A stretch of DNA of 44,019 nt from a virus. The notes under the pieces were generated by a model that saw only the letters and a list, made by a program, of their open reading frames with translations, had not been told where the DNA came from and ran no database searches. The DNA is taken from the IMG/VR virus record IMGVR_UViG_3300047564_003298, positions 1 to 44,019 of that record. One strand, written 5' to 3'. Position 1 is the first letter of the stretch. Each line of letters begins with the position of its first letter. This document shows, piece by piece, positions 3,001-16,803 of this stretch. Both the position numbers and the translations under genes were made by a program.

Positions 3001-5111
3001 TCACCTTGAGCACCTTGAGGTCCTTGTGGACCCTGAGGACCTTGTGGACCAAAGACGCCCTGTGGACCCTGTGGTCCTTGAGGACCTTGTGGTCCAACAA
3101 TTAGACCAGCATCAACCCATTGTACAAGATCGTCATTGTAGACATAAAGATGTCCAATGCTTGTTACAACATAAGCGTCAGCATCATTTGCTGTACCTGG
3201 CAAATCAACAACATTGATTACAGTACCAAGCACATTGATGCCACCACCAGGAACACCCTGTGGTCCTTGTGGTCCTTGTGGACCCTGAGGTCCTTGTGGA
3301 CCCGCAACACCCTGTGGACCTTGTGGTCCTTGTGGTCCAAACACACCTTGTGGTCCTTGTGGACCTTGAGGACCAGTGACGCCCTGTGGACCCTGTGGAC
3401 CAATAAATGGACCAGCATCAACCCAAACAGCTGGATGTGGACAATCATCCCAAACATATAAGTGACCATCTGCGATGACAATATATGCATCACCTGCAGT
3501 TTGGTCAGTGATTGAATTGATTAGAATTGCATAAGTTGGTACTGTGCCGACAAGACGAATGCCAGCACCAGGAATACCTTGAGCACCTGATGGACCTGAT
3601 GGTCCTTGTGGACCAATTGCGCCTTGAGCACCACTTGGTCCTTGTGGACCTTGTGGTCCTGAGAAACCGCGATCACCTTTGACGCCTTGTGGTCCTTGTG
3701 GACCTGTTGGTCCACGTGAGCCTTGTGGACCACGACGACCTGTTGTCGCAGTGACTTCCCATGACATTCCATTATAAATGAATTCAACGGTAACGCCTTT
3801 GAGATCAAGTCTTACAATTTGATCGCTACCTTCAATCGTATTGTCTAATGAGCGAACAAAAAGATTATTTGCAGTCCAATCATCACCATCAGTGACTTGA
3901 ACATATCCACCAACAACTGGCGTATTTGGTAGTGTGATTGTGAATGGACCATTGACGGTTGTATTTGCTACAATACGATCACCATCAACTGCTGTGTAAT
4001 CTAATGAGTGAACTGACCAGTGTTGTAGTGCACCACTTGCGCCTTGAGGACCAGTTGGACCAGCAACACCTTGCGGACCACGTGGACCAGCAACACCTTG
4101 AATGCCTGATGGACCTGTTGGACCTTGCGGACCAGATGGACCAGCAGAACCAACTAAACCTTGTGGACCTGATGGACCTTGAGGTCCAGCAAAGCCTCGA
4201 GGACCAGATGGACCTTGCGGACCAATATCACCTTGAGCACCTTGAGGACCAGCAACGCCAGATGGACCTTGAGGACCAGCAACACCACGTGGACCTGTTG
4301 CGCCAGAAGGACCAGCATCACCTTGAAGACCTTGCGCACCTGAAGGACCGCTTGGACCAGTAGGACCAACAGCACCAGTTGCACCAGCTGGACCTTGAGG
4401 ACCACGAGCACCGCTTGGACCAGTAGGACCTGTCGGACCTTCGTCACCAACTGCGCCTGACGGACCAATTGGACCTTGCGGACCTGCTGCGCCAACTAAA
4501 CCACGTGGACCTGATGGACCTTGTGGTCCAGCAAAACCTTGAAGACCTTGTGCACCTGATGGACCTTCTGGACCCTGAGGACCAGCAATACCTTGAGCAC
4601 CAGATGGACCTTGAGGACCAGCAACACCACGTGGACCAGAAACACCTTGTGGACCTTGTGGACCTGCTTGACCTTGAATACCTTGTGCGCCAGACGGACC
4701 TGAAGGACCAGATGGACCTTGAGCGCCAGCAACACCTTGAGGACCACGTGGACCAGATACGCCACTTGGTCCAGAAGGACCAGACGGACCAGCAATACCC
4801 TGAGCACCAACTGGACCAGTTGGACCACGCGCACCAACAGGACCACTAGGACCTGATGGACCAGAAACACCTTGAGGACCTTGTGGTCCTAAACCGCCCT
4901 GCGGACCTTGAGGACCCGCAGGACCAGATGGACCTTGTGGACCGCCAGAAGGACCTGTAGGACCGAGCGAACCCTGAGGACCTGACGGACCCTGTGGACC
5001 TTGTGGACCAGCAGGTCCACCTGCGCCACGACCAGTTGAGACTTTTACAACTGGTTTCTGTGTAGAAACTTTGATTGTCTGGCCAATAGCCGTGCTGACA
5101 TTCGCTGACAT
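1..5111 (-). CDS. Giant collagen-like tail fibre protein (3' end outside window)
   Basis: An uninterrupted minus-strand frame of at least 1703 codons starts at ATG 5111 and runs off the left edge with no stop. A short head ([17 protein letters not shown]) is followed by six Gly-X-Y blocks at about residues 27-361, 458-517, 570-624, 673-753, 873-1001 and 1453-1574. These are separated by non-collagen domains A to D. Domains B (about 517-570) and B' (624-673) are duplicates (VDAG ends, LYV-D cores). Domains C (753-873) and C' (1574-1703) are also duplicates, both ending in RTGDKG, so a seventh collagen block probably begins at the edge. Domain D (1001-1453) carries a phage-fibre motif, WHAGND followed by LDADLLDG. 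Gly-X-Y repeats are known to form trimeric rods in phage fibres. The start is one base after the stop of the preceding gene. The role as a host-contacting virion fibre is inferred. I am sure of the frame and repeats, less so of the exact attachment site. Confidence 0.9.
390..755 (-). repeat. Collagen-like block 6 (Gly-X-Y)
   Basis: About 120 residues of GPQ/GPS/GVV-type triplets, encoded by near-identical 9-base units (GGA/GGT-CCA-CAA on the coding strand). It follows domain D and precedes domain C'. Confidence 0.9.
2110..2494 (-). repeat. Collagen-like block 5 (Gly-X-Y)
   Basis: About 128 residues of triplets starting [10 protein letters not shown]. It contains a short break ([11 protein letters not shown]) and ends GPTGPVAGS before the long domain D. 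Confidence 0.9.
2855..3095 (-). repeat. Collagen-like block 4 (Gly-X-Y)
   Basis: About 80 residues of mostly GPQ triplets, including GETGPQ, GEVGPQ and GARGPQ. It joins domain B' to domain C. Confidence 0.9.
3241..3402 (-). repeat. Collagen-like block 3 (Gly-X-Y)
   Basis: About 54 residues, almost pure GPQ with GVT, GVF and GVA triplets, ending GVPGGG. It links the duplicated domains B and B'. Confidence 0.9.
3561..3740 (-). repeat. Collagen-like block 2 (Gly-X-Y)
   Basis: About 60 residues starting [10 protein letters not shown] and ending GIPGAG. It contains the few charged triplets (GVKGDRG), which are typical sites that favour trimer register. Confidence 0.9.
4030..5031 (-). repeat. Collagen-like block 1 (longest Gly-X-Y)
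   Basis: About 334 residues of Gly-X-Y with one single-residue slip (GPSGGPQG). It is richer in Ser, Thr, Ala and Arg at the Y position (GPS, GPT, GAR) than the later, nearly pure GPQ blocks. Proline is almost always at X and very rarely at Y. Confidence 0.9.
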
Positions 5112-5112
5112 A

Positions 5113-5448
5113 TTACTGAGTTACCTGAGGGAGAACTGTAATGATTCCTTCGACGATTCTTGTAGTTAGATTCGCAGTGTCTTTCTGTTTCACATCAAAT
5201 AGGTAACGACCAGCCTTTATATTGGACGTTGTAGCAGAGTTCATAGTAAGAGTGACATTGCCATTCGCTGCGCTTACTATTGTGACAGTAAGATTTGCTG
5301 TCACATTTGCGGAATAGTAAGATTTACGAATTGACGACGTAAAGATATAGCCTGTTATATTTAGAGGGCTTCCGTCGTCTTGGGTCAGATCGAGATTATA
5401 GGAGAGATCTGTTCCCTGGTCAAGATCTAATTCTACAAATTGCGCCAT
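5113..5448 (-). CDS. Small beta-rich virion protein (BppU N-terminal-like)
   Basis: This 111-aa protein begins MAQFVELDLDQGTDLSYNL and contains the pattern DDGSPLNITGY, then a stretch of beta-strand-like sequence, then IKAGRYLFDVK and a C-terminal EGIITVLP. A lead-in of the type E-x-D-x-DQG-x-x-x, followed by DG-x-P-x-N-x-TGY and AGRY-x-x-D, is common in short phage structural proteins related to the N-terminal domain of baseplate protein BppU. It is the first gene behind a perfect late promoter (5473-5480), with a GGGGA ribosome site. It lies one base upstream of the collagen-like fibre gene, so it may be a fibre adaptor or base domain (inference). No catalytic residues are visible. Family recognition is from memory of pattern only. 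Confidence 0.7.
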   Translation of the reverse strand: MAQFVELDLDQGTDLSYNLDLTQDDGSPLNITGYIFTSSIRKSYYSANVTANLTVTIVSAANGNVTLTMNSATTSNIKAGRYLFDVKQKDTANLTTRIVEGIITVLPQVTQ

Positions 5449-5505: not shown

Positions 5506-6312
5506 TCAATCTCCTGTATATTTCTCCAGTTTGAACTTCTTCTTGATCATATAATACTTACGATACCAGTTCCCTTCGTAGAATTTCTTAGGACTTTTAT
5601 GGGAATCTAATTGCTCGACCGTTCCTGGACCAAATGAGGCAGAAAAGTCATCAGTCGTCTTGAATGGAATCACCTGAAGGAGAGGGGTTCCTGCAGGGAT
5701 CGTGAGATCTATCCTTCTCTTTGGTGAGAAAATTACATTGGCAGTCGTAAACTCTCTATAATCCACAACCCCAGGATAAAGATATAAATCTTCAAGATAT
5801 GGACAATGATAAAAAGCAGGGAGCAATAACGCAGAAACGTTTTTCTTTCCGAAGATCTTCCATGGACCTGGCATATTGAATGCTGTTGGTTTGATATCAT
5901 CACCGAATGTAAACAGACCATTTGTTACATCTGTTGACATTGGAAATGGTTCTTTCAGTGGAAGTTCTGGTGGATTTATTTGAATTGGATTCTCAAATGG
6001 ATGAGGCTTTGGCTTTGCTGCCTTATCTGCTAAAGATGTACCATAACGAATTGCAGTGCCTGCTTTGTTTGCTTTGATATGAATGTCAACCCATGCAGTG
6101 ATCAAATAACCCATTCGTGAATAATCGTGCATTCCAGGACATCCTGGAAAGTTATAACTGCCCTGGTCTTTTTCCTGAAACTCTTTGAAGAACGGTTTTA
6201 CGTCTTTCGCAAGAAGAATTGGATAGTGAGTGTAAACCTGTCGACTTGAATCAACAAATTCTAAATCAGGAGTTTCTTTTGAAAAGAAATTGAATAATTT
6301 ATTCATCTTCAT
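5506..6312 (-). CDS. Uncharacterised phage protein, paralogue of its upstream neighbour
   Basis: 268 aa, function not recognised. It shares a layout with the protein encoded just upstream. Residues CPGMHDYSRMGYLITAW align with the neighbour's CLPMLDAMSLGFTIPLA, and both are followed by a D-x-H-x strand. Near the C-terminus both have an AGTPLLQVIPFK or AGTPLVTAIPVK segment. It ends in a basic, aromatic tail (EGNWYRKYYMIKKKFK). No signal peptide or membrane segment is visible. The ATG at 6312 overlaps the end of the previous gene by 14 bases; an ATG at 6306 is possible. The pattern recalls small phage/bacterial families of unknown function such as DUF6065, but I cannot confirm membership. Its position after the oxygenase gene suggests a late, fibre-related role (inference). 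Confidence 0.75.
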   Translation of the reverse strand: MKMNKLFNFFSKETPDLEFVDSSRQVYTHYPILLAKDVKPFFKEFQEKDQGSYNFPGCPGMHDYSRMGYLITAWVDIHIKANKAGTAIRYGTSLADKAAKPKPHPFENPIQINPPELPLKEPFPMSTDVTNGLFTFGDDIKPTAFNMPGPWKIFGKKNVSALLLPAFYHCPYLEDLYLYPGVVDYREFTTANVIFSPKRRIDLTIPAGTPLLQVIPFKTTDDFSASFGPGTVEQLDSHKSPKKFYEGNWYRKYYMIKKKFKLEKYTGD

Positions 6313-7045
6313 GTTTTCTCTTTCTCAATTCCCAAGTATAGTGATGAGTTCTTGTATGCTGAGCCTTTTGAATCTTTTCAATATGCTTCTTCTCACCCGA
6401 AGTCATTGAACGAACTTTTGGTTTACGATTATTGAATGAGCCACGTTTGACTGGAATTGCAGTCACCAAAGGAGTTCCTGCTGGCAGACTTCCGTCGAAA
6501 TCAGGCACAAGCCAAGCCGCAGGAAAGTTTACTTCTTTCGGATATGCATCAGTATCAACATATCCAGCAAGGCAGCGGAATGGCTGATCGAAATGATTCA
6601 TTGGTGGAATAAACAACGTTGACCAACCTGGTTTTGTTTTGATGACCCAACGATTGATGAACTTCACGGGATTACCGTGCTTGACGCCCATCGCTGCTTT
6701 ACCACCGACTTGACCAGCATCATGGAATTCAGCAACAACAATTCCAGGTGGATTTATAATTTCTATTTGAGTGCAGTTGTGATTCGTAGTTACATGAAGA
6801 TCACCAGCAAGAGGAATTGTAAATCCAAGAGACATAGCATCAAGCATCGGTAAACACTTCTTTGCTGTCATGGTTGGATTACCGAAAACGTCGCGCTTGC
6901 CTGCATCGAATGTTGGCGCAAGATCTTTGAACCATTTGGGAAGATACTTCACAGCAGGGCGAGGTTCTGGAATTACGCCATCGAAATCTGGATGGCAATA
7001 GAATTCCATTACATCATTGCCCCAGAACTTGAGCCAATTTTTCAT
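6299..7045 (-). CDS. Uncharacterised phage protein (possible DUF6065-like)
   Basis: 248 aa from the ATG at 7045, starting MKNWLKFWGND. Visible blocks are KKCLPMLDAMSLGF, then GDLHV, then KPGWSTLFIPPMNH, CLAGYVDTDAYP and PAGTPLVTAIPVKR. A C-terminal tail is rich in Lys, His and Arg. A GWS-LF-P-N, then VDTD, then GTPL-IPVK order is seen in DUF6065-type proteins; I offer that as a weak resemblance. I prefer the ATG at 7045 over an upstream GTG at 7063 because it lies one base after the oxygenase stop codon and has a GAGAGG site upstream. It is a tandem paralogue of the next gene. Its function is unknown. Confidence 0.8.
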   Translation of the reverse strand: MKNWLKFWGNDVMEFYCHPDFDGVIPEPRPAVKYLPKWFKDLAPTFDAGKRDVFGNPTMTAKKCLPMLDAMSLGFTIPLAGDLHVTTNHNCTQIEIINPPGIVVAEFHDAGQVGGKAAMGVKHGNPVKFINRWVIKTKPGWSTLFIPPMNHFDQPFRCLAGYVDTDAYPKEVNFPAAWLVPDFDGSLPAGTPLVTAIPVKRGSFNNRKPKVRSMTSGEKKHIEKIQKAQHTRTHHYTWELRKRKHEDE

Positions 7046-7046
7046 A

Positions 7047-7646
7047 TCAATTAGTCCTCTCACCCATGACCCAACATACTAATGATTTACGAACACCAGA
7101 AGTCACTGGAGCGACGCGATGTGGCATGAACGAAGAAAAGAAAATAACATCCCCACGTTTGGGCTTCATAACAATTGGATTATCAACTCGACCATGAGGC
7201 ACTAATTGAAATTCACCACCTTGATAGTCATCTGGATCGGTGAGCAGAACTGATGCGCTAATCTTGCGAATATAATTGGCACTAGTGGTATCCATATCCA
7301 TGTGCCAATCATAATGTTGTTTGTTCTTTGCTTTGTATACTGTGTATTGAAAATTATCAAAACCATCGATGTTATACATGAAATGGTCGTTATTTACTTG
7401 CGAAAGAAGAGCACCAAATTTTTGAAAGATCCAATCTGAGTTTTGATCATGCATGATCCACATGATATCACTGTCGCGAGCTTTTTTGTTTACTGCGCCA
7501 CCAGTGCCGCCGCCGACAGCACCTCTTTGAAACTTTTGCAAGTCTTCAAGATCAACAATCTTGTCACATTCTTCTTCAGTAAAAACGTTTGATGCTACGC
7601 AGTACTGTTGTAATGTCTTAGCGTATTTTTGCACTTTGAATGGCAT
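7047..7646 (-). CDS. 2-oxoglutarate/Fe(II)-dependent oxygenase, prolyl 4-hydroxylase type (copy 1, intact site)
   Basis: 199 aa. The double-stranded beta-helix iron site is complete: H115 and D117 in YDWHMDMD, H176 in FMPHRV, and R186 in SGVRKSL as the likely 2-oxoglutarate ligand. Between them is LLTDPDDYQGGEFQLV, typical of PKHD/P4H-type phage and bacterial enzymes. Such enzymes hydroxylate protein side chains (often proline) using O2 and 2-oxoglutarate. The start at 7646 is supported by GGAG five bases upstream. It follows an Asn/Tyr repeat protein gene directly, the same order seen for the paralogue at 11.7 kb. Its substrate is unknown; the neighbouring repeat proteins and the collagen-like fibre are the obvious candidates (inference). 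Class assignment is firm, substrate is not. Confidence 0.9.
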   Translation of the reverse strand: MPFKVQKYAKTLQQYCVASNVFTEEECDKIVDLEDLQKFQRGAVGGGTGGAVNKKARDSDIMWIMHDQNSDWIFQKFGALLSQVNNDHFMYNIDGFDNFQYTVYKAKNKQHYDWHMDMDTTSANYIRKISASVLLTDPDDYQGGEFQLVPHGRVDNPIVMKPKRGDVIFFSSFMPHRVAPVTSGVRKSLVCWVMGERTN

Positions 7647-7684
7647 AACAACTCCACATTTTGCAGAATAACCAAATTATACTA

Positions 7685-7692
7685 TATTTAGT
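7685..7692 (-). promoter_or_regulatory. Possible late promoter, ACTAAATA
   Basis: ACTAAATA matches 6 of 8 positions of the late consensus and overlaps the stop codon of the 820-aa repeat gene. It lies about 39 bases upstream of the oxygenase start. The paralogous oxygenase gene has a better box in the same position. Confidence 0.4.
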
Positions 7693-10150
7693 CGATCTTT
7701 ACAACTATTTGACCACCTGTTGGCACAACGACTGGATAGTTGGCTGAATCGGGATATACATTTGTGTCTATTGCAGTTGGTGGCACATATGGTGCTAATT
7801 GACCTGCGTTATATCCAGAAATTGTATTTGCTGGTCCTGTGTTATAATTAGCAGTTGCTCCATCGCCACCTGGGAAATATACACCAAGAACATTTGTTGG
7901 TGCGCCAGAAGTGCCAAGAACTGGGAAATTATATGACGCAACATTACCAACGTTATATGTTGCTGCAGTATTGCCTGTATATGATGCTGGATTTCTTGGA
8001 TTATATGTTGCAGGATTTCCTGCATTGTATGATGCTACGTTATTACCAGTGTATGTTGCTGGAACTGGAGGATTATAACTTGCTGGATTGCCAGCGTTAT
8101 AATTGGCAATGGTGTTGCCTGTATAAGTTGCAGGATTTCCTGGATTATATGTCGCAGGATTACCAGCGTTATAATTAGCAAGAGTGTTACCAGAATACGA
8201 AGCAATGCTTCCAGGATTATATGTTGCTGCGGTTCCTGCGTTATATCCTGCAACATTATTACCAGTATATGTGGCAGCGGAACCAACATTGTAATTTGCT
8301 GAACCTGGATTGTATGCTGCTACGTTTCGTGGATTGTACGTGGCTGGCGTTCCAGCATTGTAGTTTGCATTATTTCCAACATAACCAGAAATATTTGTTG
8401 GTGTGTAACTTGCTGGGCTACCTGTATTATAATTAGCATTATTTCCAGTGTACGCTGCGATATTATTGCCAGAATAAGAAGCAGGTGATCCAGTATTGTA
8501 ATTCGCCGAACCAGGATTATATGCAGCTACGTTTCTTGGATTGTAAGACGCAATATTACCTGTATTGTAGTTGGCACTGTTACCAGAATATCCAGCGATG
8601 TTTCGTGGGTTATATGATGCGATATTATTGCCAGAATAAGATGCTGCTGTGCCAGCATTGTAGTTCGCAGATCCAGCATTATAGGCTGCGATGTTTCGCG
8701 GATTGTATGATGCAATATTTCCTGCATTATAATTTGCTGAGCCTGGATTATAGCCAGCCACTGATGGAGAATTATACGTTGCAGCGTTTCCAGAGTTGTA
8801 GTTTGCGGAACCTGGATTGTATACACCTGTTGGATTTCCTGGTGATCCTGGGAAATTGGTGAAATCAACAGTTAGCGTGCCGCCTCCAAGATTTGGAGAA
8901 AACCCAGTAACACTAACTGGACCAGCCGTGGTGTTGAAAACACGATTTCCAGTATTGAATGATGTTCCAGTACCAAAATAAGGGAACACTTCATATCCAT
9001 TCGCATTGTTGTACATTTCCTCATATTCACCAATCATGAGGTATCCAGTATTACTAAAATACATACCAGCTGACCAATTTGATTCAGTTGGAGCATTCAA
9101 ATTTTGTGTATTGCCAGAATATCCAGCGATGTTTCGTGGATTGTATGATGCAATATTTCCAGGAGTGAAGTTTGCGTTATTACCAGAATAACCAGCGATG
9201 TTTCTTGGATTGTATGATGCAACAGTGCCTGGATTATAGTTGGCGCTATTGCCAGAATATCCTGCGATATTTCTTGGGTTATAGGATGCAATCGCTCCAG
9301 GATTATAACTGGCTGCAGTTCCTACGTTATAGTTTGCTGAGCCTGGATTATATGCTGCTACGTTTCTTGGATTATATGATGCGGCATTACCAGCATTATA
9401 GTTCGCACTGTTACCAGAGTATCCAGAAATATTAGTAGGTGTGTATGATGCTGGGCTTCCAGTATTATAGTTGGGAGAACCAGGATTATACGCTGCTAGA
9501 TTGTTACCAGTATATGATGCTGGGCTTCCAGTATTGTACGTCGCACTACCAGAGTTATATGCTGCTACGTTTCTTGGATTATATGTCGCAGGAGTTCCTG
9601 CGTTATAGTTGGCACTGTTGCCAGAGTAGCCAGCAATGTTCGTTGGATTGTAAGAAGCAATATTGCCCGTATTATATCCAGAAACGTTGCGTGGATTGTA
9701 AGATGCTATATTATTTCCGCTATACGAAGCCGCACTTCCTGCGTTGTAGTTCGCGTTGTTTCCAGTATATGATGCGGTGTTATTTCCACTATACGAGGCT
9801 GGATTGCCTGCATTATAGTTGGCGCTATTACCTGTATACGACGCTGGGACTGGAGGGTTGTAAGACGCAGGATTGCCAGCGTTATATGTCGCAGCGTTAT
9901 TTCCAGAATAGGAAGCCGTTGTCCCTGCGTTATACGTCGCTGGACTGCCTGAGTTGTAGGTTGATGCACTGTTCCCAGTGTATGTGGCAATGTTTCCTGG
10001 AGTCGCATTATTACCTGTGCCTGCGCGTCCAGAAACTGAAGCATTGAAACGACCATATGGAATCGTTATGCTGGATGTATTATTGAAAGTGGTTGTGTTT
10101 CGAAATGCCGAACCGATCCAGCTTTTCAACAGGTCTGTGTGTAAGGGCAT
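7688..10150 (-). CDS. Asn/Tyr-rich repeat fibre protein, single-chain form
   Basis: 820 aa, built almost entirely of about 8-residue units of the form x-x-A-(S/N/T)-Y-(N/S/T)-x-(G/N/R), for example NPASYNPG, NIAGYSGN and SANYNAG. The N-terminus (about residues 1-60) is globular-looking and contains PYGR then VSGRAGTGN, shared with the 758-aa repeat protein. A non-repeat insert lies at about residues 345-435 (TESNWSAGMYF onward). The C-terminus, with GVYFPGG and ending VPTGGQIVVKID, is shared with the 516-aa repeat protein. Charged residues are scarce apart from Arg in NPRN units. The composition and regular spacing suggest a fibrous or solenoid virion protein, probably host-facing (inference). 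I do not recognise the repeat family. Confidence 0.85.
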   Translation of the reverse strand: MPLHTDLLKSWIGSAFRNTTTFNNTSSITIPYGRFNASVSGRAGTGNNATPGNIATYTGNSASTYNSGSPATYNAGTTASYSGNNAATYNAGNPASYNPPVPASYTGNSANYNAGNPASYSGNNTASYTGNNANYNAGSAASYSGNNIASYNPRNVSGYNTGNIASYNPTNIAGYSGNSANYNAGTPATYNPRNVAAYNSGSATYNTGSPASYTGNNLAAYNPGSPNYNTGSPASYTPTNISGYSGNSANYNAGNAASYNPRNVAAYNPGSANYNVGTAASYNPGAIASYNPRNIAGYSGNSANYNPGTVASYNPRNIAGYSGNNANFTPGNIASYNPRNIAGYSGNTQNLNAPTESNWSAGMYFSNTGYLMIGEYEEMYNNANGYEVFPYFGTGTSFNTGNRVFNTTAGPVSVTGFSPNLGGGTLTVDFTNFPGSPGNPTGVYNPGSANYNSGNAATYNSPSVAGYNPGSANYNAGNIASYNPRNIAAYNAGSANYNAGTAASYSGNNIASYNPRNIAGYSGNSANYNTGNIASYNPRNVAAYNPGSANYNTGSPASYSGNNIAAYTGNNANYNTGSPASYTPTNISGYVGNNANYNAGTPATYNPRNVAAYNPGSANYNVGSAATYTGNNVAGYNAGTAATYNPGSIASYSGNTLANYNAGNPATYNPGNPATYTGNTIANYNAGNPASYNPPVPATYTGNNVASYNAGNPATYNPRNPASYTGNTAATYNVGNVASYNFPVLGTSGAPTNVLGVYFPGGDGATANYNTGPANTISGYNAGQLAPYVPPTAIDTNVYPDSANYPVVVPTGGQIVVKID
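7790..10030 (-). repeat. Degenerate 24-base tandem repeat (8-residue units)
   Basis: Long run of in-frame 21 to 24-base units encoding A-x-Y-N-x-G-N-type octads. It is interrupted by one non-repeat insert at about 8845-9115. Units differ at synonymous and Ser/Thr/Asn/Ala positions, so the repeat is old and under protein-level constraint rather than recently amplified. Confidence 0.85.
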
Positions 10151-10178
10151 CTATACCAAAATCCATTGCTAGTTTGGA

Positions 10179-10186
10179 TATTTAGT
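10179..10186 (-). promoter_or_regulatory. Possible late promoter, ACTAAATA
   Basis: ACTAAATA, a 6 of 8 match to the late box, lies 28 bases upstream of the 820-aa gene start in a 46-base gap after the glycosyltransferase. Spacing resembles that of the perfect box at 5473. Confidence 0.45.
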
Positions 10187-10196
10187 ATTTGCGGAA

Positions 10197-11159
10197 TCAA
10201 TCGTATCGGTCGGGGATTTCCCAGTCATTCACGACATCTGGAGGCAAAAGAATACTTCTCGAGATGGCTCTATTCTCAAGTTTTCGATTGATGTAGTCGA
10301 CGCCAGAGTATTTTCGATATTCTTCGAAGAAATCATCGCTGAAACTATCCAAGAAAATGCGAAATTCTTTCTTCGACTTTTCTTTATTTCTCTGCAACTG
10401 TTCATGCGAAACAACTTGGCTTACATCTTGTTTCGTGATATATCGATGCGTGTCGATTAGATGATAGCAATGAATCTGCGTAGGCGCGCAGAGTTTATAT
10501 CCTGCAGCGATAGACGCAAGAGTCATATACTGCTCCTCACCCTCAAAGAAGATGCGAGGATTCATTCCGACATTTCTTAGCCAATCGCTATGTGTGAAAA
10601 AGTTTCCAGCAAATAGGTGAATTGTTGGGTGTAAGAAATCTTTAGTCGCCTCTCGAAACTCGCCGTGAGCACCAAGAATATAGTTATCGTGGAAAGACCA
10701 ATATCCAGCCTTTACTGTAATGCTTCCATGACGATCAATAAATGGAGTACCGTCGTCTTGCATTCTGAATGAGCCACAATTCGCATCGATGATAATTCTA
10801 TCGGTTTGATGCTGCTGCATTCCAAGTTTGAAATCATTGATCAAATAACGATCCCAATTCTTATCAAACAGCATATGAGAGTCGACTTGATAATAGAACT
10901 CTTCATCGTCAAGTTGAATTGAATTCAGATGTCTTGCCCAACCGACTCCGTCTGAATATTTGGCATCAATTCTTTTATAGCGAACGTTTTTATTTTGAGC
11001 GAGATCTGGATACTTCGCTTCTAGACTATCTGGGTAGTCAGTCTGTTCAAATACGCCATACGTCACTTTTGTCAGTTGAGATTGCATCTCCATCATATTG
11101 CGTAAAGTTTGGTGGAGAAGTGGGTCTCTGTACGAGACAATACTGACAAAAATCTTCAT
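10197..11159 (-). CDS. GT60-like glycosyltransferase (Skp1 GlcNAc-transferase type)
   Basis: 320 aa from ATG 11159. The fold is GT-A-like. It begins MKIFVSIVSYRDPLLHQTL, a nucleotide-binding strand. The metal-site motif is YYQVDSHMLFDKNWD (D-S-H in place of DXD). A C-terminal acceptor/catalytic region reads NPRIFFEGEEQYMTLASIAAG and then HCYHL. This order (SI-SYRDP, DSHM-F--NWD, FF-GEE) is that of the GT60 family, whose characterised eukaryotic members add GlcNAc to hydroxyproline of Skp1. The preceding oxygenase stop overlaps this ATG (TAATG), and GAGAGG lies upstream, so the start is well supported and the two are probably translated together. No signal peptide; it would act in the cell. 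Donor and acceptor are unknown. Modification of hydroxylated fibre proteins is inference from context. Confidence 0.85.
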   Translation of the reverse strand: MKIFVSIVSYRDPLLHQTLRNMMEMQSQLTKVTYGVFEQTDYPDSLEAKYPDLAQNKNVRYKRIDAKYSDGVGWARHLNSIQLDDEEFYYQVDSHMLFDKNWDRYLINDFKLGMQQHQTDRIIIDANCGSFRMQDDGTPFIDRHGSITVKAGYWSFHDNYILGAHGEFREATKDFLHPTIHLFAGNFFTHSDWLRNVGMNPRIFFEGEEQYMTLASIAAGYKLCAPTQIHCYHLIDTHRYITKQDVSQVVSHEQLQRNKEKSKKEFRIFLDSFSDDFFEEYRKYSGVDYINRKLENRAISRSILLPPDVVNDWEIPDRYD

Positions 11160-11722
11160 TAGCAACCTCTCTTTCCCATCACCCATACGTTCAACGACTT
11201 GCGCGTTCCAGAAGTGACTGTTGTGATTCGTGATGGCATCCATGGAGCATGGAAAACTATGCTGCCCAAATTTGGTTTGATTGGCATCACTTCTCCAGGA
11301 TCACCCGTGCCCATGATCTCAATCTCACCGCCCAAATATTCTTCTGGGTCTGTGAGCATAATTGATGCCGAGATTTTACGTTCCCAATTTAGAAATGCAA
11401 AGTCGACATCGTAATGCCAACCACATTCTTGCCCTTTCTTATATTTGGTATATGCGAATGCATCAAACCCATCAATATCGTACATGAAGAAATCGATATT
11501 GATTCGACCAACCAACGCAGAAAACTTATCAAAGAGCCATTGAGTGTCTTGATTTGGCGGGAGAATCGCGATGTCTGCTTTATTCTTGCCGTTTATCTGG
11601 TCTTTAGAAAACATTAGTTTCTTTTCTAAAGAAGTCACAGCATCAACTTCTTCTTGTGTCAAGAAGTCCGATATGACAGCGAATTTGGATAGAACACGAT
11701 TATATTTGATAACTTGAGGCAT
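11159..11722 (-). CDS. 2-oxoglutarate/Fe(II) oxygenase-like protein (copy 2, distal His replaced)
   Basis: 187 aa, clear paralogue of the enzyme at 7047-7646: shared MYDIDGFD, LTDPEEYLGGE, VTSGTRKSL and WVMG blocks. H103 and D105 are present in GWHYDVDF and R174 in SGTRKSL. The residue aligned with the distal iron ligand is Ser164 (WMPSRI against FMPHRV), encoded by TCA at 11233-11231, two base changes from any His codon. His158 lies six residues earlier and could conceivably substitute. It may be inactive, altered in chemistry, or a substrate-binding partner. The start at ATG 11722 has GGAG six bases upstream and aligns with the paralogue; an upstream GTG at 11734 is less likely. It overlaps the glycosyltransferase start. 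Confidence 0.85.
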   Translation of the reverse strand: MPQVIKYNRVLSKFAVISDFLTQEEVDAVTSLEKKLMFSKDQINGKNKADIAILPPNQDTQWLFDKFSALVGRINIDFFMYDIDGFDAFAYTKYKKGQECGWHYDVDFAFLNWERKISASIMLTDPEEYLGGEIEIMGTGDPGEVMPIKPNLGSIVFHAPWMPSRITTVTSGTRKSLNVWVMGKRGC

Positions 11723-11758
11723 AACGAACTCCACTTTACATGATCAACTAGTATAACC

Positions 11759-11766
11759 TATTTATT
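11759..11766 (-). promoter_or_regulatory. Probable late promoter, AATAAATA
   Basis: AATAAATA matches 7 of 8 positions of the late consensus. It sits 36 bases upstream of the second oxygenase start and overlaps the stop codon of the 516-aa repeat gene. It would drive the oxygenase-glycosyltransferase pair. Confidence 0.6.
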
Positions 11767-13312
11767 CGATTCTTACAACTATTTGTCCACCTGCAGGAAC
11801 TTCAATTGGGTGATCGCGATAATCAATCTCTTGGTTCTCAAAGTAGTAGCTGACTTCTTGCTCATTGACGTATACACCTGGAGCACAAACGCCGCCACCT
11901 GGGAAGTAAACACCAAATGCATATCCAGGCTCTCCTGGAGTTCCAGGAATTGGGAAGTTGTAGGTGCTTGCGCTTCCAGGATTATATGATGCTACAAAGT
12001 TTCCAGAATAACTTGCTATGCTATTGCCTGTGTATGTTGCTGGATTTCCTGAGTTGTAGCCAGAAACAAAGTTGGATGTATATGATGCTGGGTTACCAAG
12101 ATTATATGATGGCGGTGGTGCTGGATTATATCCAGCGATATTGTTTCCAGTATACGTTGCAGGGCTACCTGTGTTATATCCTGCATTGTTACCAGTATAA
12201 CCAGCTAATGTATTTCCAGAGAATCCACCAACAAACGTTGGATTATAATTTCCTGGATTACCAGTATTATATGATGCAGGATTACCACCAGGAGCAAATC
12301 CTGCTGTATTGTTGCCTGTATAGTTACCAGCAGAACCTGAATTATAGTTTACGCTGTTACCAGAATAGTTGCCAGCTGTTGCAGGATTATAGTTCTCAGT
12401 GTTACCAATATAATTTGCTATTGAACCTGTGTTATAATTTGGACCACCAGATCCACCTGCTGGAGTACATTCATAATTGACTTCATAATATTGTAATCCA
12501 CCACTTGTACTATTGATAACACCATTGGTTGTTGCAATTGGTGATGGGCAACTTGCGCTCCATCCAGACTCATAGTTCACATTGTTTACAAAAACCGAAT
12601 ACTCTAAAGGCTCACCTGGAGCACTTACTCTTCTTTCAACTTCATAGAAAGTCGTAGCATTCCAATTTACTCCACCACCACCTGGATTATATCCTGAGAT
12701 GTTTGTTGGGTTATATCCTGAAATATTGGTTGGGTTGAATGTTGCCGCATTTGTTGGATTGAATGATGCCACATTTCCAGGAGTATAATTTGCGTTTCCT
12801 GGAGTAAATGCTGGTGGATTATAGCCTGTGATTGTTGGTGCATTGTACGTTGCAGGATTTCCACCTGACAATACTGGATTGTAAGTTGCTGTGTTATCAT
12901 TATAACCTGCAAGAGATCCTGCATTATAATCACCAGTCCAATTACCTGGTGTCGGCGGACCACCCTCTAATGCGGTATATGTTATGTAAATGTTTAGTCC
13001 AATAGCCGCATGTGGACCTGCTCCTGGATTACCATAAGCAGTAGTTGGGCTTGGCAGCGTTGGCGTTGTCAATAATTGAGGATAATATTGAAATCCAATT
13101 TGAACAGGATCTTCTTCAAAAACTTGAGCAAATCCATTATCATTGACAAAAAATGTTGCGCTCCAATAAACCAATCCACCACCTGACGGTGGATTGTATG
13201 TCATGAAATTGCCAGTATATGATGCTACACCTGTATTATAGCCTGAAAGGTTTCCACCAGTGCTTGGATTGTATGTTGCAGGATTTCCTGGTGAGTAGAT
13301 TTCAGTAGACAT
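11762..13312 (-). CDS. Asn/Tyr-rich repeat fibre protein, C-terminal-type partner
   Basis: 516 aa of the same octad repeats (PATYNPST, NISGYNPT, NPASYTSN) with two non-repeat inserts, at about residues 48-130 (starting VYWSATFFVND) and 225-295 (starting NWNATTFYEVE and ending YECTPAG). The C-terminus, with NFPIPGTPG and GVYFPGG and ending VPAGGQIVVRIE, matches that of the 820-aa protein. The N-terminus lacks the PYGR/VSGR head of the other two repeat proteins. Its ATG overlaps the stop of the 758-aa gene (TAATG), so the two are translationally coupled. Together, 758 plus 516 contain the head and tail that the 820-aa protein has in one chain. It is probably a virion fibre component; the repeat family is unrecognised. 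Confidence 0.85.
   Translation of the reverse strand: MSTEIYSPGNPATYNPSTGGNLSGYNTGVASYTGNFMTYNPPSGGGLVYWSATFFVNDNGFAQVFEEDPVQIGFQYYPQLLTTPTLPSPTTAYGNPGAGPHAAIGLNIYITYTALEGGPPTPGNWTGDYNAGSLAGYNDNTATYNPVLSGGNPATYNAPTITGYNPPAFTPGNANYTPGNVASFNPTNAATFNPTNISGYNPTNISGYNPGGGGVNWNATTFYEVERRVSAPGEPLEYSVFVNNVNYESGWSASCPSPIATTNGVINSTSGGLQYYEVNYECTPAGGSGGPNYNTGSIANYIGNTENYNPATAGNYSGNSVNYNSGSAGNYTGNNTAGFAPGGNPASYNTGNPGNYNPTFVGGFSGNTLAGYTGNNAGYNTGSPATYTGNNIAGYNPAPPPSYNLGNPASYTSNFVSGYNSGNPATYTGNSIASYSGNFVASYNPGSASTYNFPIPGTPGEPGYAFGVYFPGGGVCAPGVYVNEQEVSYYFENQEIDYRDHPIEVPAGGQIVVRIE
11965..13305 (-). repeat. Degenerate octad-coding tandem repeat
   Basis: In-frame 21 to 24-base units encoding A/G-x-Y-N/T-x-G-N octads, broken by inserts at about 12425-12665 and 12915-13185. 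Confidence 0.8.
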
Positions 13313-15588
13313 TAGTAAGTTAGAACCCCATTAGCATAGAAATTTGGGCTAGACTTATACTTATTATTGAATGTATAGACTGTATATGGATAGTTGATTG
13401 AGACAATTGCGTTGATGCGTATAGCATTACCATTCTTGTCTACAAAACTATCTCCAACTTGAACTTGTGCAACTTCCTCCAAAGATCTATATCCTTGCAT
13501 TGTCAAATTTGGATTCATAGAAGCATAACCCTTTCCGATAACGAAGAATGGGTGATCATCAGATGCTCTGATTGCAACGCTATTTTCCAAGATGTACTCA
13601 AACATGACTCTGTTCACACGAGTAATAATTTCTGAAACTTCATTCGTCTCGTGCTGACCTGTTTCTGGATTGTAAGATAGAATTTCATCTCCAACCTGAA
13701 TAGTCTCAATGGTCTTGGTTGAGCCGTCAGCCATTGCAATGAGCGTGTCACCAGCGAAGCAACATCCACCACCGCCACCACCACTTGGTGCTGGAGCGTT
13801 ATAACCAGAAATTGTTGGTTCATTATATGTTGCTGCAAATCCTTCATTATAAGTTGCCACATTACCTGCATTATAAACAGCATTTCCAGCATTATATGTT
13901 TCAGTGCTTCCGCTGTTATATCCAGCAATGTTGTTTCCGCTATAAGTTCCTGCTACACCACTGTTATAGTTTGCAATATTACCTGGAACATAATTTGCGA
14001 TAGATCCAGCGTTATAGCTCCCTGTTGCAAAGTTTCCAGTGTAGTTTGCGATGTTTCCTGTGTTGTAAAGCTGCGCGCCAGCCGCATTGAATGTTGCTGT
14101 GAAGTTTCCAGTATAGTTTGCTGGATTACCTGTATTGTAATCTGCACTTCCTATATTATACACAGCATTACCCACATTGAAGCCACCAATAGTAGTTGGC
14201 GTGAATGATGCTGGATTGCCTGTATTGTAATTCGGTGTTGATGCGCCTGGAGGATTATAACCATTGATTGTTGCAAACGAACAATCAGTAAATGGATTTC
14301 CTGGAGTGAAGACTGCTGAGTTGCCAACAAAGCTGTTTATATTACCAGCGTTGTAAACTGCATTTCCTTGATTATAATTTGCATTATTATCAGTATAAGT
14401 GATTGCATTACCAGCAGTGAATCCTGAAGGATTACCTGTATTATAGTTTGCATTATTACCAGTATATCCACCGATAAAATTGCCGCTATAAGTTGATGGT
14501 GTTCCGACGTTGTAAGCACTTGCTGATCCTGGATTATATCCAGAAATATTTGTTGTATTATATGATGCTGGGTTTCCAGGATTATAAACTAGTGTTCCTG
14601 GATTATAATTGGCAGTTCCAGGCGTTGCTGGAGAACACTCATAGTATATATTATAGAAGTAAACCATTTGCCCACCACCAACAACAAACCCAGGAAAGTT
14701 TGGGAAGTTGCTTGGCGTGACTGCTTCTGCTGTAAATTCAGTTGGGCAACCAACTGATGTTCCTGTTCCTTCAAATGCTATTTGTTGATAATAATAGTAA
14801 CCTTCATCGAAGAAAGTTTCAACGATAACACCATACCAATTTACTGTTGATGGATTGTAGTTTGCAATTCCACCTGGATTATATACTGGCGACATTCCAC
14901 CAAATATATTAGTTGGAACTGTTACAACATTTCCTGCATTATAGGTTGCAGGATTACCAGTATTATAGTTTGCGCTATTCCCAGAATAGGCAGTGATATT
15001 GTTCGAACCACCAACATATGTTGCTGGATTGCCTGTGGTATATGTTGCACTACCAGCATTGTATCCGCTAATGTTTCTTGTATTATAACCGCCAGGAGTT
15101 GCAGCGTTATAACTTGTACCAACACCAGTATTATAACCAGCAATGTTTGTTGCGTTATAACCTGTAATGTTGCCAGCATTATATTGAGCGCCGCCTGTGC
15201 TTCCTGAGTTATACCCCACAATGACTGCAGGATTGAAGCCAGTGCCACAAGGATTATAGATTGCGTTATTACCACCGCTGGCTGGAATTTCAGTATTTCC
15301 AGTATACGATGCTGGGTTGCCAAAATTGTAATTGGCGTTGTTACCAGTATAGGAAGCAGTAAAACCTGGATTGTATGTTGCAGCAACACCAGAGTTATAT
15401 GATGCTGCGCTGTTGCCTGTATAAGTTGCAATATTACCAGGAACTAGACAGTTACCAGATCCACCGCGACCTGAAACGTAAAGACGATTTCTTCCATATG
15501 GAACAAACATATTTCCATATGTGTTGAACACAGTCGACCCACGAGTTGCCGTCCATGTTTTTTCTAATTCATCAATACGTTTTGGCAT
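13312..15588 (-). CDS. Asn/Tyr-rich repeat fibre protein with C-terminal Hint autoprocessing domain
   Basis: 758 aa. The head (about 1-60) has VPYGR and VSGRGGSGN as in the 820-aa protein. Octad repeats run to about residue 600, with a non-repeat insert at about 250-340 (NWYGVIVETFF to YYECSPATPG). After a six-Gly linker comes a Hint domain, residues 609-758. It has CCFAGDTLIAMADG with Cys609/610 as candidate nucleophile, QVGDEILSYN, then S676-D-D-H679 in RASDDHPFFV as the TxxH-like block, then VYTFNN and NFYANGVLTY at the end. Hint domains break the peptide bond before the Cys by an N-to-S acyl shift. The usual C-terminal His-Asn is absent, so N-terminal cleavage or transfer, not splicing, is expected. 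Its stop overlaps the next repeat gene's start. Confidence 0.85.
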   Translation of the reverse strand: MPKRIDELEKTWTATRGSTVFNTYGNMFVPYGRNRLYVSGRGGSGNCLVPGNIATYTGNSAASYNSGVAATYNPGFTASYTGNNANYNFGNPASYTGNTEIPASGGNNAIYNPCGTGFNPAVIVGYNSGSTGGAQYNAGNITGYNATNIAGYNTGVGTSYNAATPGGYNTRNISGYNAGSATYTTGNPATYVGGSNNITAYSGNSANYNTGNPATYNAGNVVTVPTNIFGGMSPVYNPGGIANYNPSTVNWYGVIVETFFDEGYYYYQQIAFEGTGTSVGCPTEFTAEAVTPSNFPNFPGFVVGGGQMVYFYNIYYECSPATPGTANYNPGTLVYNPGNPASYNTTNISGYNPGSASAYNVGTPSTYSGNFIGGYTGNNANYNTGNPSGFTAGNAITYTDNNANYNQGNAVYNAGNINSFVGNSAVFTPGNPFTDCSFATINGYNPPGASTPNYNTGNPASFTPTTIGGFNVGNAVYNIGSADYNTGNPANYTGNFTATFNAAGAQLYNTGNIANYTGNFATGSYNAGSIANYVPGNIANYNSGVAGTYSGNNIAGYNSGSTETYNAGNAVYNAGNVATYNEGFAATYNEPTISGYNAPAPSGGGGGGCCFAGDTLIAMADGSTKTIETIQVGDEILSYNPETGQHETNEVSEIITRVNRVMFEYILENSVAIRASDDHPFFVIGKGYASMNPNLTMQGYRSLEEVAQVQVGDSFVDKNGNAIRINAIVSINYPYTVYTFNNKYKSSPNFYANGVLTY
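13785..15450 (-). repeat. Degenerate octad-coding tandem repeat
   Basis: In-frame units encoding A-x-Y-N/T-x-G-N octads, with a higher share of Val and Ile (VYNAGNIN types) than the other two proteins. Broken by an insert at about 14610-14850. Confidence 0.8.
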
Positions 15589-15594
15589 TGTATC

Positions 15595-16803
15595 TTATCT
15601 GAAGTCTTTTACTGCCAATGTACCAACATACGTTGAGCCACCGTCATACGATGTAAATGTCCAAAGATCTTTACTACTTGATCCTGTAGTTTTTGGAGGA
15701 ATTGCGCCACCAGACCAATAAACAGTATTGGCAAAAGTATAGGTTCTTCCGCCAGTTCCATCTTGGATGATAATAAGCGAGAACGTCACTGCAAGACCAT
15801 TAGATGGTGCATTGGTAAACGTAAACGTCGTTGGTCCATTGAGAGTATACTTGAACCAATTTGATGAACTCAAGTCTACGCTCACTGCACCTGATACTGT
15901 GCTTGAAGAGATAAAGTCTTTAGTTGCCTTGAAGTTTGCAGTGACGTTACCCATGACAACGTTGGCTGGAAGATTATTGTATTCAATTTTCCAAGCACCA
16001 TCTGATTCATGCCAGTGGAGATCAGCATTTGCTGTTCCAATACTTTGACCGCGACGAACACGGAAGTATCCATCACCACCTGAAGAAGAAGTGAATCGAA
16101 GAACATATTTGTCGCTATCGGTCACTGCTGGGGCAAGAATAGGGTCTTCAACAGTCAACGTGCGAATATACGCATTGATGATATTTGCATTAGCAATGTT
16201 CGCAAGATTACGAACAAGTAGATTACCTGTTGCTGTATTACTTGCAACGTTTAGATTATATGCAAATACGTTATTTGTTACGTTCAACGTTCCAGTAACA
16301 TTCACATTTGCAAAGATAAACGTATTTGGGTGAATGTTTAGCGTTGCGGACTGTTCTGTATTTGCAATGTTTACAATACCAGCATTGATTGACACTTTCA
16401 CAACGTTGACGTTTATGATACCATGCGAAACGTTTGAGAAGGTGATGTTAGATCCATAGAATGCAGTGTTTGTATTTACTGTGAATAGATCTGTTTCGCC
16501 CATTCTTCTAAATTCAATGTCGCCAGCGTCGACATAAACATGATTTGTAGAATTGTCTACTTCTATGTTATGGACAGTAAGTGTTCCATCGATATTCGTA
16601 TCGTCTTTGACGTCAAGAATAACACCGCCAGCAGAGTTAGCGATGCGAACGTAACCCTCTGAGATGACAACGTTGCCAAAAGGCTTGACGAAGTCGCCGC
16701 GACAAATTTCGTTCACGTCGTTTGCCATGAGGTTGTCGTTGATACGCCACTGATTGAACGTATTTGACACCGTTGTTAGGTAAACATTTATTGTATTTGC
16801 CAT
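15595..16803 (-). CDS. Tail fibre / virion structural protein
   Basis: 402 aa. The N-terminus (MANTINVYLTTVSNTFNQWR) reads like a phage fibre head. The middle is a long beta-rich stretch of Val/Asn/Thr repeats (about 65-215), typical of a beta-helix shaft. Residues about 225-285 hold RFTSSSGGDGYFRVRRG and ADLHWHESDGAWKIEYNN. The C-terminal 110 residues (VDLSSSNWFKYTLNGPTTF and IIIQDGTGGRTYTF, then TFTSYDGG) match a domain common at the tips of phage fibres. The gene starts one base after the coiled-coil gene. Adhesion or baseplate-attached fibre function is inferred from architecture. Exact T4 counterpart not assigned. Confidence 0.75.
   Translation of the reverse strand: MANTINVYLTTVSNTFNQWRINDNLMANDVNEICRGDFVKPFGNVVISEGYVRIANSAGGVILDVKDDTNIDGTLTVHNIEVDNSTNHVYVDAGDIEFRRMGETDLFTVNTNTAFYGSNITFSNVSHGIINVNVVKVSINAGIVNIANTEQSATLNIHPNTFIFANVNVTGTLNVTNNVFAYNLNVASNTATGNLLVRNLANIANANIINAYIRTLTVEDPILAPAVTDSDKYVLRFTSSSGGDGYFRVRRGQSIGTANADLHWHESDGAWKIEYNNLPANVVMGNVTANFKATKDFISSSTVSGAVSVDLSSSNWFKYTLNGPTTFTFTNAPSNGLAVTFSLIIIQDGTGGRTYTFANTVYWSGGAIPPKTTGSSSKDLWTFTSYDGGSTYVGTLAVKDFR

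What the first reader, a model, noticed from the sequence alone, without database searches (positions are those of the whole stretch)
5506..15588. Hydroxylase plus GT60 glycosyltransferase island flanked by repeat fibres
Two 2OG/Fe(II) prolyl-hydroxylase-type genes and a GT60-like glycosyltransferase lie among three Asn/Tyr-Pro repeat proteins and beside a giant collagen-like fibre. GT60 enzymes in eukaryotes attach GlcNAc to hydroxyproline made by a prolyl hydroxylase (Skp1 pathway). The second oxygenase stop and the GT start share bases, so the two are probably co-translated. Inference: the phage hydroxylates and then glycosylates its own receptor-facing fibres, for stability, surface masking or host adhesion. 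I know of no description of a phage pathway of this kind.
Basis: partly seen in the sequence, partly recalled or inferred. Interest (0 to 1): 0.88.

Follow-up and report, generated by a model that had tools for sequence, protein, structure and literature searches.

The report
Phage fibre hydroxylation-glycosylation gene cassette
Uncultured phages carry a conserved set of genes beside an unusual repetitive tail-region protein: an oxygenase, two accessory proteins and a sugar-adding enzyme, which probably hydroxylate and then sugar-coat that protein, in a way so far known mainly from eukaryotes and giant viruses.

Summary
The genes are real. Two 2OG-oxygenases, a PF11397/GT60-type glycosyltransferase (GT) and three Tyr-Asn repeat proteins lie beside a collagen-like fibre in a T4-like baseplate/fibre operon. 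These are the key: 28 non-redundant viral contigs carry a strictly ordered, mostly overlapping cassette oxygenase-DUF6065a-DUF6065b-GT. Searching with only the repeat protein's C-terminus (37 loci) or N-terminus (45 loci) recovers the oxygenase directly downstream in every locus whose flank reaches that far. So the repeat protein is the likely substrate. The GT model is closest to polypeptide GalNAc-transferases and keeps an invariant D-x-H motif. DUF6065 has a dUTPase-like fold. No cultured phage was found to carry the cassette.

The parts
13312..15588 (-). Tyr-Asn repeat protein A, with the conserved N-terminal domain of the repeat family; C-terminal Hint (intein-like) domain
11762..13312 (-). 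Tyr-Asn repeat protein B (conserved C-terminal domain, no N-terminal domain); start overlaps the stop of protein A
11159..11734 (-). 2OG#2: 2OG-Fe(II) oxygenase homologue that lacks the distal Fe-binding His (Ser/Ala in all six orthologues); predicted pseudoenzyme under purifying selection
   Evidence: PF13640 6e-9
10197..11159 (-). PF11397/GT60-type glycosyltransferase; ATG overlaps 2OG#2 stop (TAATG)
   Evidence: AlphaFold pLDDT 91.3; Foldseek
7688..10150 (-). Tyr-Asn repeat protein C with conserved N- and C-terminal domains, directly upstream of 2OG#1; most likely substrate
7047..7646 (-). 2OG#1: 2OG-Fe(II) oxygenase with intact H115-x-D117...H176 and Arg for 2OG; the likely hydroxylase
   Evidence: PF13640 2e-16
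6299..7063 (-). DUF6065a: dUTPase-like (beta-clip) fold protein, always next to the oxygenase in the cassette
   Evidence: PF19541 4.5e-9; AlphaFold pLDDT 81; Foldseek
5506..6312 (-). DUF6065b: divergent paralogue of DUF6065a, third gene of the cassette
   Evidence: phrog_7084 2.7e-14
5113..5448 (-). 111-aa protein like L-shaped tail-fibre assembly factor; conserved downstream neighbour
   Evidence: phrog_3304 1.9e-17
1..5111 (-). Collagen-like (GPQ) fibre, runs off the record; neighbour, probably not a substrate of a collagen-type P4H
15595..16803 (-). Tail-fibre-like protein, upstream neighbour
   Evidence: phrog_9017 2.3e-16

Best explanation
This is a dedicated post-translational modification module for a repetitive fibre-like phage protein. 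The Tyr-Asn repeat protein is made first. The 2OG oxygenase (2OG#1 here), with the dUTPase-fold DUF6065 proteins as partner or scaffold subunits, hydroxylates side chains along its repeats, most likely Pro. The GT60-type enzyme then adds a sugar, probably GlcNAc, to the new hydroxyls (or to neighbouring Thr/Ser). In the window's clade two such cassettes seem to have merged. One kept 2OG#1-DUF6065a-DUF6065b. The other kept only a probably dead 2OG#2 plus the GT, and 2OG#2 may now position or stabilise the GT. Shown: the genes, their strict linkage to the repeat protein, the predicted folds, the active-site conservation and loss. Inferred: catalysis, order of steps, residue, sugar, and the role of DUF6065. 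The benefit (stiff, protease-resistant or altered adhesive surface) is a guess.
For: Linkage: of 39 DUF6065a clusters (90% identity), 32 have the oxygenase immediately upstream and 32 have DUF6065b immediately downstream; 25 of those 32 then have the GT (seeds came from the cassette, so the sample leans towards it). Independent test: scanning with only the repeat protein's C-terminal 62 aa gives the oxygenase next door in 36 of 37 loci, the exception being cut by the contig end. With only the N-terminal 52 aa it is 41 of 45, the other four being cut by the fetched flank or contig end. 28 non-redundant four-gene cassettes; 86-93% of junctions overlap; genes co-vary in divergence (r 0.67-0.81, p 0.0005). 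The GT model's top matches are nearly all polypeptide GalNAc-transferases (best E 1.6e-10), and D-x-H is invariant in 25 GTs. The oxygenase's nearest solved relatives are PKHD and prolyl-4-hydroxylases. In window repeat protein C the repeat core (about 710 aa) has no Lys and almost no Asp, His or Cys, leaving Pro/Asn/Tyr as hydroxylation targets. In L022 a second fibre with a similar N-terminus has its own DUF6065-oxygenase pair, and its Pro sits at the collagen Y position in 21% of triplets. Sulfotransferase-like genes sit in some cassettes, two of them without a GT, as if another group capped the hydroxyl.
Against: No protein or glycan data exist. Pro context varies between repeat families (YNPRN, YNPGS, ANQP, VPGN, NGPQ) and many window units have no Pro. 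GT60 includes Thr-directed enzymes, so hydroxylation need not be a prerequisite. The dUTPase-like fold of DUF6065 has no obvious place in protein modification. A few cassettes lack the GT (L168, L175, L215, L216). That the repeat protein is in the virion at all is inferred from position.
Confidence: 0.66

Rival explanations
1. Two independent modifications of the same repeat protein: the oxygenase hydroxylates Pro or Asn for stability, while the GT60 enzyme adds sugar directly to Thr/Ser, as T. cruzi GT60 enzymes do.
For: GT60 includes the T. cruzi polypeptide alpha-GlcNAc-transferase (PMC6939170). Repeats are 7-26% Thr and 2-12% Ser. Some cassettes keep the oxygenase but have no GT, so hydroxylation is useful alone. 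Nearest GT folds are Thr/Ser polypeptide GalNAc-transferases.
Against: No cassette-type GT was seen without the oxygenase; 2OG#2 is translationally coupled to the GT in the window clade.
Confidence: 0.2
2. A DNA or nucleotide hypermodification cassette: oxygenase oxidises a base, GT glycosylates it, the dUTPase-fold pair handles the nucleotide pool.
For: DUF6065 has a dUTPase-like fold. Oxygenase plus GT is a known recipe of phage DNA hypermodification (own knowledge). DUF6065 of haloviruses lies next to a ribonucleotide reductase gene.
Against: The oxygenase is PF13640 (P4H/PKHD type), not Tet_JBP. The GT belongs to a peptide-modifying family. The cassette sits in the fibre region directly behind the repeat protein. 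A 173-kb phage with the cassette encodes separate Tet_JBP and dUTPase genes some 40-50 kb away.
Confidence: 0.07
3. The enzymes act mainly on the giant collagen-like fibre (collagen-type prolyl hydroxylation and glycosylation).
For: The fibre lies two genes from DUF6065b and is a frequent neighbour of the cassette.
Against: Pro is at X (168/262) and almost never at Y (3/262), the collagen P4H site. Several cassette loci have no collagen-like gene within the fetched flank, whereas the repeat protein is next to the oxygenase in nearly all.
Confidence: 0.07

Closest known systems
Skp1 prolyl-hydroxylation/glycosylation pathway (PhyA/Phy1 + Gnt1, GT60) of Dictyostelium and Toxoplasma
   Same: Prolyl-hydroxylase-type 2OG enzyme paired with a GT60-family transferase (PMC6939170)
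   Different: Substrate is a repetitive phage fibre-like protein, not Skp1; adds a dUTPase-fold pair and a pseudo-oxygenase; acceptor unproven
Mimivirus L230/R699 collagen lysyl hydroxylase and glycosyltransferases
   Same: Virus hydroxylates then glycosylates its own fibrous protein (PMC9546862)
   Different: Lys-directed, different enzyme families, eukaryotic virus; here the core of window repeat protein C has no Lys
Chlorella virus PBCV-1 prolyl 4-hydroxylase
   Same: Virus-encoded P4H-type enzyme, hydroxyproline in viral proteins (Eriksson 1999, cited in PMC9301287)
   Different: No GT60 partner or DUF6065 known to me, not a fibre cassette
Glycosylated virions of mycobacteriophages
   Same: Phage-encoded GTs modify virion proteins (Freeman 2023, cited in PMC12619734)
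   Different: Capsid and tail-tube C-termini, no hydroxylation step known to me
Cyanophage 2OG-Fe(II) oxygenases (phrog_61)
   Same: Same broad oxygenase family, common in cyanophages
   Different: PHROGs files them as moron/auxiliary metabolic genes; none found with the DUF6065/GT cassette

Membership tests
GT60 / PF11397 glycosyltransferase | Profile match above curated cut-off | tested here: met
   101.7 bits against 21, E 7.6e-29
GT60 / PF11397 glycosyltransferase | GT-A fold with metal-binding D-x-D/D-x-H | tested here: met
   D93-x-H95 invariant in 25 sequences; fold closest to GT-A polypeptide GalNAc-Ts
GT60 / PF11397 glycosyltransferase | UDP-GlcNAc:polypeptide transferase activity | not testable with these tools
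   needs enzyme assay
2OG-Fe(II) oxygenase, prolyl-hydroxylase type (2OG#1) | HxD...H iron triad and basic 2OG-binding residue | tested here: met
   H115, D117, H176, R186
2OG-Fe(II) oxygenase, prolyl-hydroxylase type (2OG#1) | Hydroxylates peptidyl proline | not testable with these tools
   nearest solved relatives are PKHD hydroxylases and P4Hs
2OG-Fe(II) oxygenase, catalytic (2OG#2) | HxD...H iron triad | tested here: not met
   distal His is Ser or Ala in all six orthologues; 64 of 74 distinct homologues keep His, another 4 could not be read by the motif search
Collagen P4H system | Collagen substrate with Pro at Y of G-X-Y | tested here: not met
   3/262 Y-Pro in the window fibre
Skp1 pathway | Skp1 as substrate of hydroxylase and Gnt1 | not tested
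   Skp1 was not searched for; the gene linked to the enzymes is the repeat protein, and Skp1 is a eukaryotic protein
DUF6065 (PF19541) | Match above cut-off, gene 6299-7063 | tested here: met
   36.6 against 26.6 bits
DUF6065 (PF19541) | Match above cut-off, gene 5506-6312 | tested here: not met
   no Pfam match; related through phrog_7084
dUTPase / dCTP deaminase superfamily | Beta-clip dUTPase fold | tested here: met
   essentially all 50 listed PDB matches are dUTPase/dCTP-deaminase, but E about 1e-3 at best
dUTPase / dCTP deaminase superfamily | dUTPase sequence profile (PF00692) | tested here: not met
   no PF00692 match; only a G-x-V-D-x-D stretch resembles motif 3 (own reading)
TET/JBP-type DNA modification | Tet_JBP oxygenase in the cassette | tested here: not met
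   oxygenases match PF13640, not Tet_JBP; Tet_JBP elsewhere in one phage

The most novel reading that the evidence does not exclude
A widespread, self-contained bacterial-virus system in which every repeat-fibre gene travels with its own modification crew (2OG hydroxylase, a dUTPase-fold heteromer turned into a hydroxylase partner, and a GT60 transferase, with sulfotransferases in some lineages). It would make extensin- or mucin-like hydroxylated glycoprotein fibres, with a pseudo-hydroxylase serving as the GT's subunit in one clade.
Probability: 0.45. Interest if true: 0.88.

Novelty: new variant of a known kind. Interest (0 to 1): 0.78.

Why it matters
Sequential hydroxylation and O-glycosylation of structural proteins is known from eukaryotes and giant viruses. 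A conserved, overlapping operon for it in tailed phages would show that phages tailor their own fibres chemically. It would give a first functional context to DUF6065 and to phage GT60 enzymes, and help explain why aquatic phages carry so many '2OG oxygenase' genes. The cassette is small and testable in E. coli, and could supply enzymes for making hydroxylated, glycosylated repeat proteins.

Tried and rejected
Searching named phages for the cassette: GT only in jumbo phage XacN1 (24% identity, no cassette); DUF6065b and a typical cassette GT none; DUF6065a only in haloviruses and two Synechococcus phages, without oxygenase beside it. The repeat protein gave no tblastn match, possibly hidden by the low-complexity filter. 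DUF6065b in 84,980 genomes: one hit on a 4.4-kb MAG contig. Rhizobial megaplasmid DUF6065 genes stand alone, no functional clue. PDB sequence search with the GT found nothing real. A fixed modification motif was sought in the repeats; none is universal beyond Tyr/Phe-Asn plus Pro somewhere. UDP clean-up as DUF6065's role was set aside because DUF6065a accompanies the oxygenase even where the GT is absent. The first C-terminal alignment (A8) was too diverse to scan with. No structure was predicted for the repeat protein (the two jobs went to DUF6065a and the GT).
Full report
OBSERVATION. The window is a 44-kb virus record (IMG/VR) with a T4-like baseplate and tail gene set (baseplate wedge subunits, hub/lysozyme, tail tube cap). 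On the minus strand, in transcription order: tail-fibre-like protein, repeat protein A, repeat protein B, 2OG#2, GT, repeat protein C, 2OG#1, DUF6065a, DUF6065b, an L-shaped-fibre-assembly-like 111-aa protein, and a collagen-like fibre running off the record. Both oxygenases match PF13640 and the GT matches PF11397 far above cut-off. TAATG joins 2OG#2 to the GT.

Between 5506 and 7063 lie two related proteins of the DUF6065/phrog_7084 type. They are the common thread of the system in other phages.

THE CASSETTE ELSEWHERE. A GT scan gave 10 viral loci. Six are close relatives with the same island; three more (two of them assemblies of one phage) with the GT at 40-43% identity carry 2OG, DUF6065a, DUF6065b and GT in a row behind a repeat protein (L011 has one extra gene between repeat protein and 2OG). 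A profile scan and a DUF6065 scan extended this. Clustering at 90% gives 39 DUF6065a groups: 32 have the oxygenase immediately before and 32 have DUF6065b immediately after; 25 of the latter are followed by the GT. The seeds came from the cassette, so two independent tests were made with the repeat protein alone. Its C-terminal domain recovers the oxygenase next door in 36 of 37 loci and its N-terminal domain in 41 of 45; the exceptions are cut off by the contig or flank end. Across 28 non-redundant cassettes 86-93% of gene junctions overlap and the four proteins diverge together. More distant phage GT60 homologues (below about 32% identity) do not carry the cassette.

THE REPEAT PROTEIN. Its N-terminus (L-x-K-T-W...TFNAPGN..IPYGR) and C-terminus (LGVYFPGG...YPDN..YPV.VPPGGQIVVKIE) are conserved. 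The middle is wildly different between phages (YNTNYNVAYPIANQP, YNTVPGNPNPPNPTNYPY, FNIVPGNATG, NGPQNFNAPT; window YNPGN/YTGNN), but is rich in Tyr/Phe-Asn, Pro, Thr/Ser and Gly/Ala and poor in Lys, Asp, His and Cys. Window spacing of Tyr is mostly 7-8 residues. With no Lys in the core of repeat protein C, lysyl hydroxylation there is excluded; Pro or Asn remain. Pro is favoured because of the P4H/PKHD kinship of the oxygenase.

THE OXYGENASES. 2OG#1 keeps H115-x-D117...H176 and Arg. 2OG#2 has Ser or Ala instead of the distal His in all six orthologues, while 64 of 74 distinct homologues keep it and four could not be read. It is still under purifying selection (median dN/dS 0.09), as expected of a retained pseudoenzyme. 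Its clade groups, with moderate support, with the oxygenase of L019 (86/82), whose GT is also the nearest outside relative of the window GT (52%). I infer that the 2OG#2-GT block came from a second cassette that lost its DUF6065 genes, while the 2OG#1 cassette lost its GT.

THE GT. AlphaFold gives pLDDT 91. The nearest solved folds are nearly all polypeptide GalNAc-transferases, consistent with a peptide acceptor. GT60 contains both the hydroxyproline-directed Gnt1 and the T. cruzi polypeptide enzyme (PMC6939170; that the latter acts on Thr is from own knowledge), so the family alone does not settle the acceptor.

DUF6065. The model (pLDDT 81) matches dUTPases/dCTP deaminases throughout the PDB top 50, at modest E-values (about 1e-3 at best), and viral dUTPases among the annotated viral hits. 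DUF6065a stays with the oxygenase even where the GT and DUF6065b are absent (L215, L216), and a DUF6065-oxygenase pair follows another fibre in L022. I therefore read it as an oxygenase partner, by analogy with the PDI subunit of collagen P4H. This is inference.

THE COLLAGEN FIBRE. Pro at X 168/262, at Y 3/262. Across 52 proteins with G-X-Y runs only three rows exceed 10% Pro at Y, and all lie within two genes of an oxygenase; two of the three rows are the same L022 fibre. So the GPQ fibre is a neighbour, probably not a target.

DNA-MODIFICATION RIVAL. Considered seriously because oxygenase, GT and dUTPase fold together suggest it. Against it: the oxygenase and GT families, the constant position behind the repeat protein, and a 173-kb cassette phage that carries separate Tet_JBP and dUTPase genes far from the cassette.

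NOVELTY. No paper in the library mentions DUF6065, and the literature searches made showed no phage hydroxylation-glycosylation pathway. Those searches cover open-access full texts only, and most results were judged from titles and abstracts. Viral precedents are PBCV-1 P4H (cited in PMC9301287), mimivirus L230/R699 (PMC9546862) and mycobacteriophage virion glycosylation (cited in PMC12619734). No cultured phage record matched DUF6065b or a cassette-type GT. Hence a new variant of a known kind: known chemistry types, new assembly, new setting, with an unexplained component.

Noticed in passing
window 13312-15588 (C-terminal ~150 aa): Hint/intein-like domain at the end of repeat protein A (CCFAGDT...NFYANGVLTY) without the terminal His-Asn, so possibly a Hedgehog-like cleavage/transfer rather than splicing. 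The next gene encodes a repeat protein with only the C-terminal family domain and starts M-S-T. Found also in L003 and L008, replaced by other tails in L004/L005.
   Followed up: partly
L004:5847-8575, L005:2-1769: In relatives the genes upstream of 2OG#2-GT contain long polyproline tracts (EPPPPPPP), a classic prolyl-hydroxylase type sequence.
   Followed up: no
L022:1864-6958: A 1245-aa GNPGNPG fibre with a similar N-terminal sequence to the repeat family, followed by its own DUF6065-oxygenase pair; Pro at collagen Y positions.
   Followed up: partly
L128:7338-7961, L131:1860-2552, L120:1602-2309, L133:6738-7388: Sulfotransferase-like genes (PF03567; weak in L133) inside or beside the cassette; L120 and L128 have no GT. 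Suggests sulfation as an alternative cap.
   Followed up: partly
L039-L096: PF11397/GT60-like genes are common in viral contigs (582 or more matches), many in large phage contigs without this cassette.
   Followed up: partly
L013, L017 (haloviruses), L178, L179 (Sinorhizobium plasmids): Stand-alone DUF6065 genes: in Hafunaviridae between a ribonucleotide reductase and the tail-adhesin operon; in rhizobia beside greA.
   Followed up: partly
contig of L126 (173 kb): This cassette phage also has Tet_JBP and dUTPase genes elsewhere, so it may modify its DNA as well.
   Followed up: no
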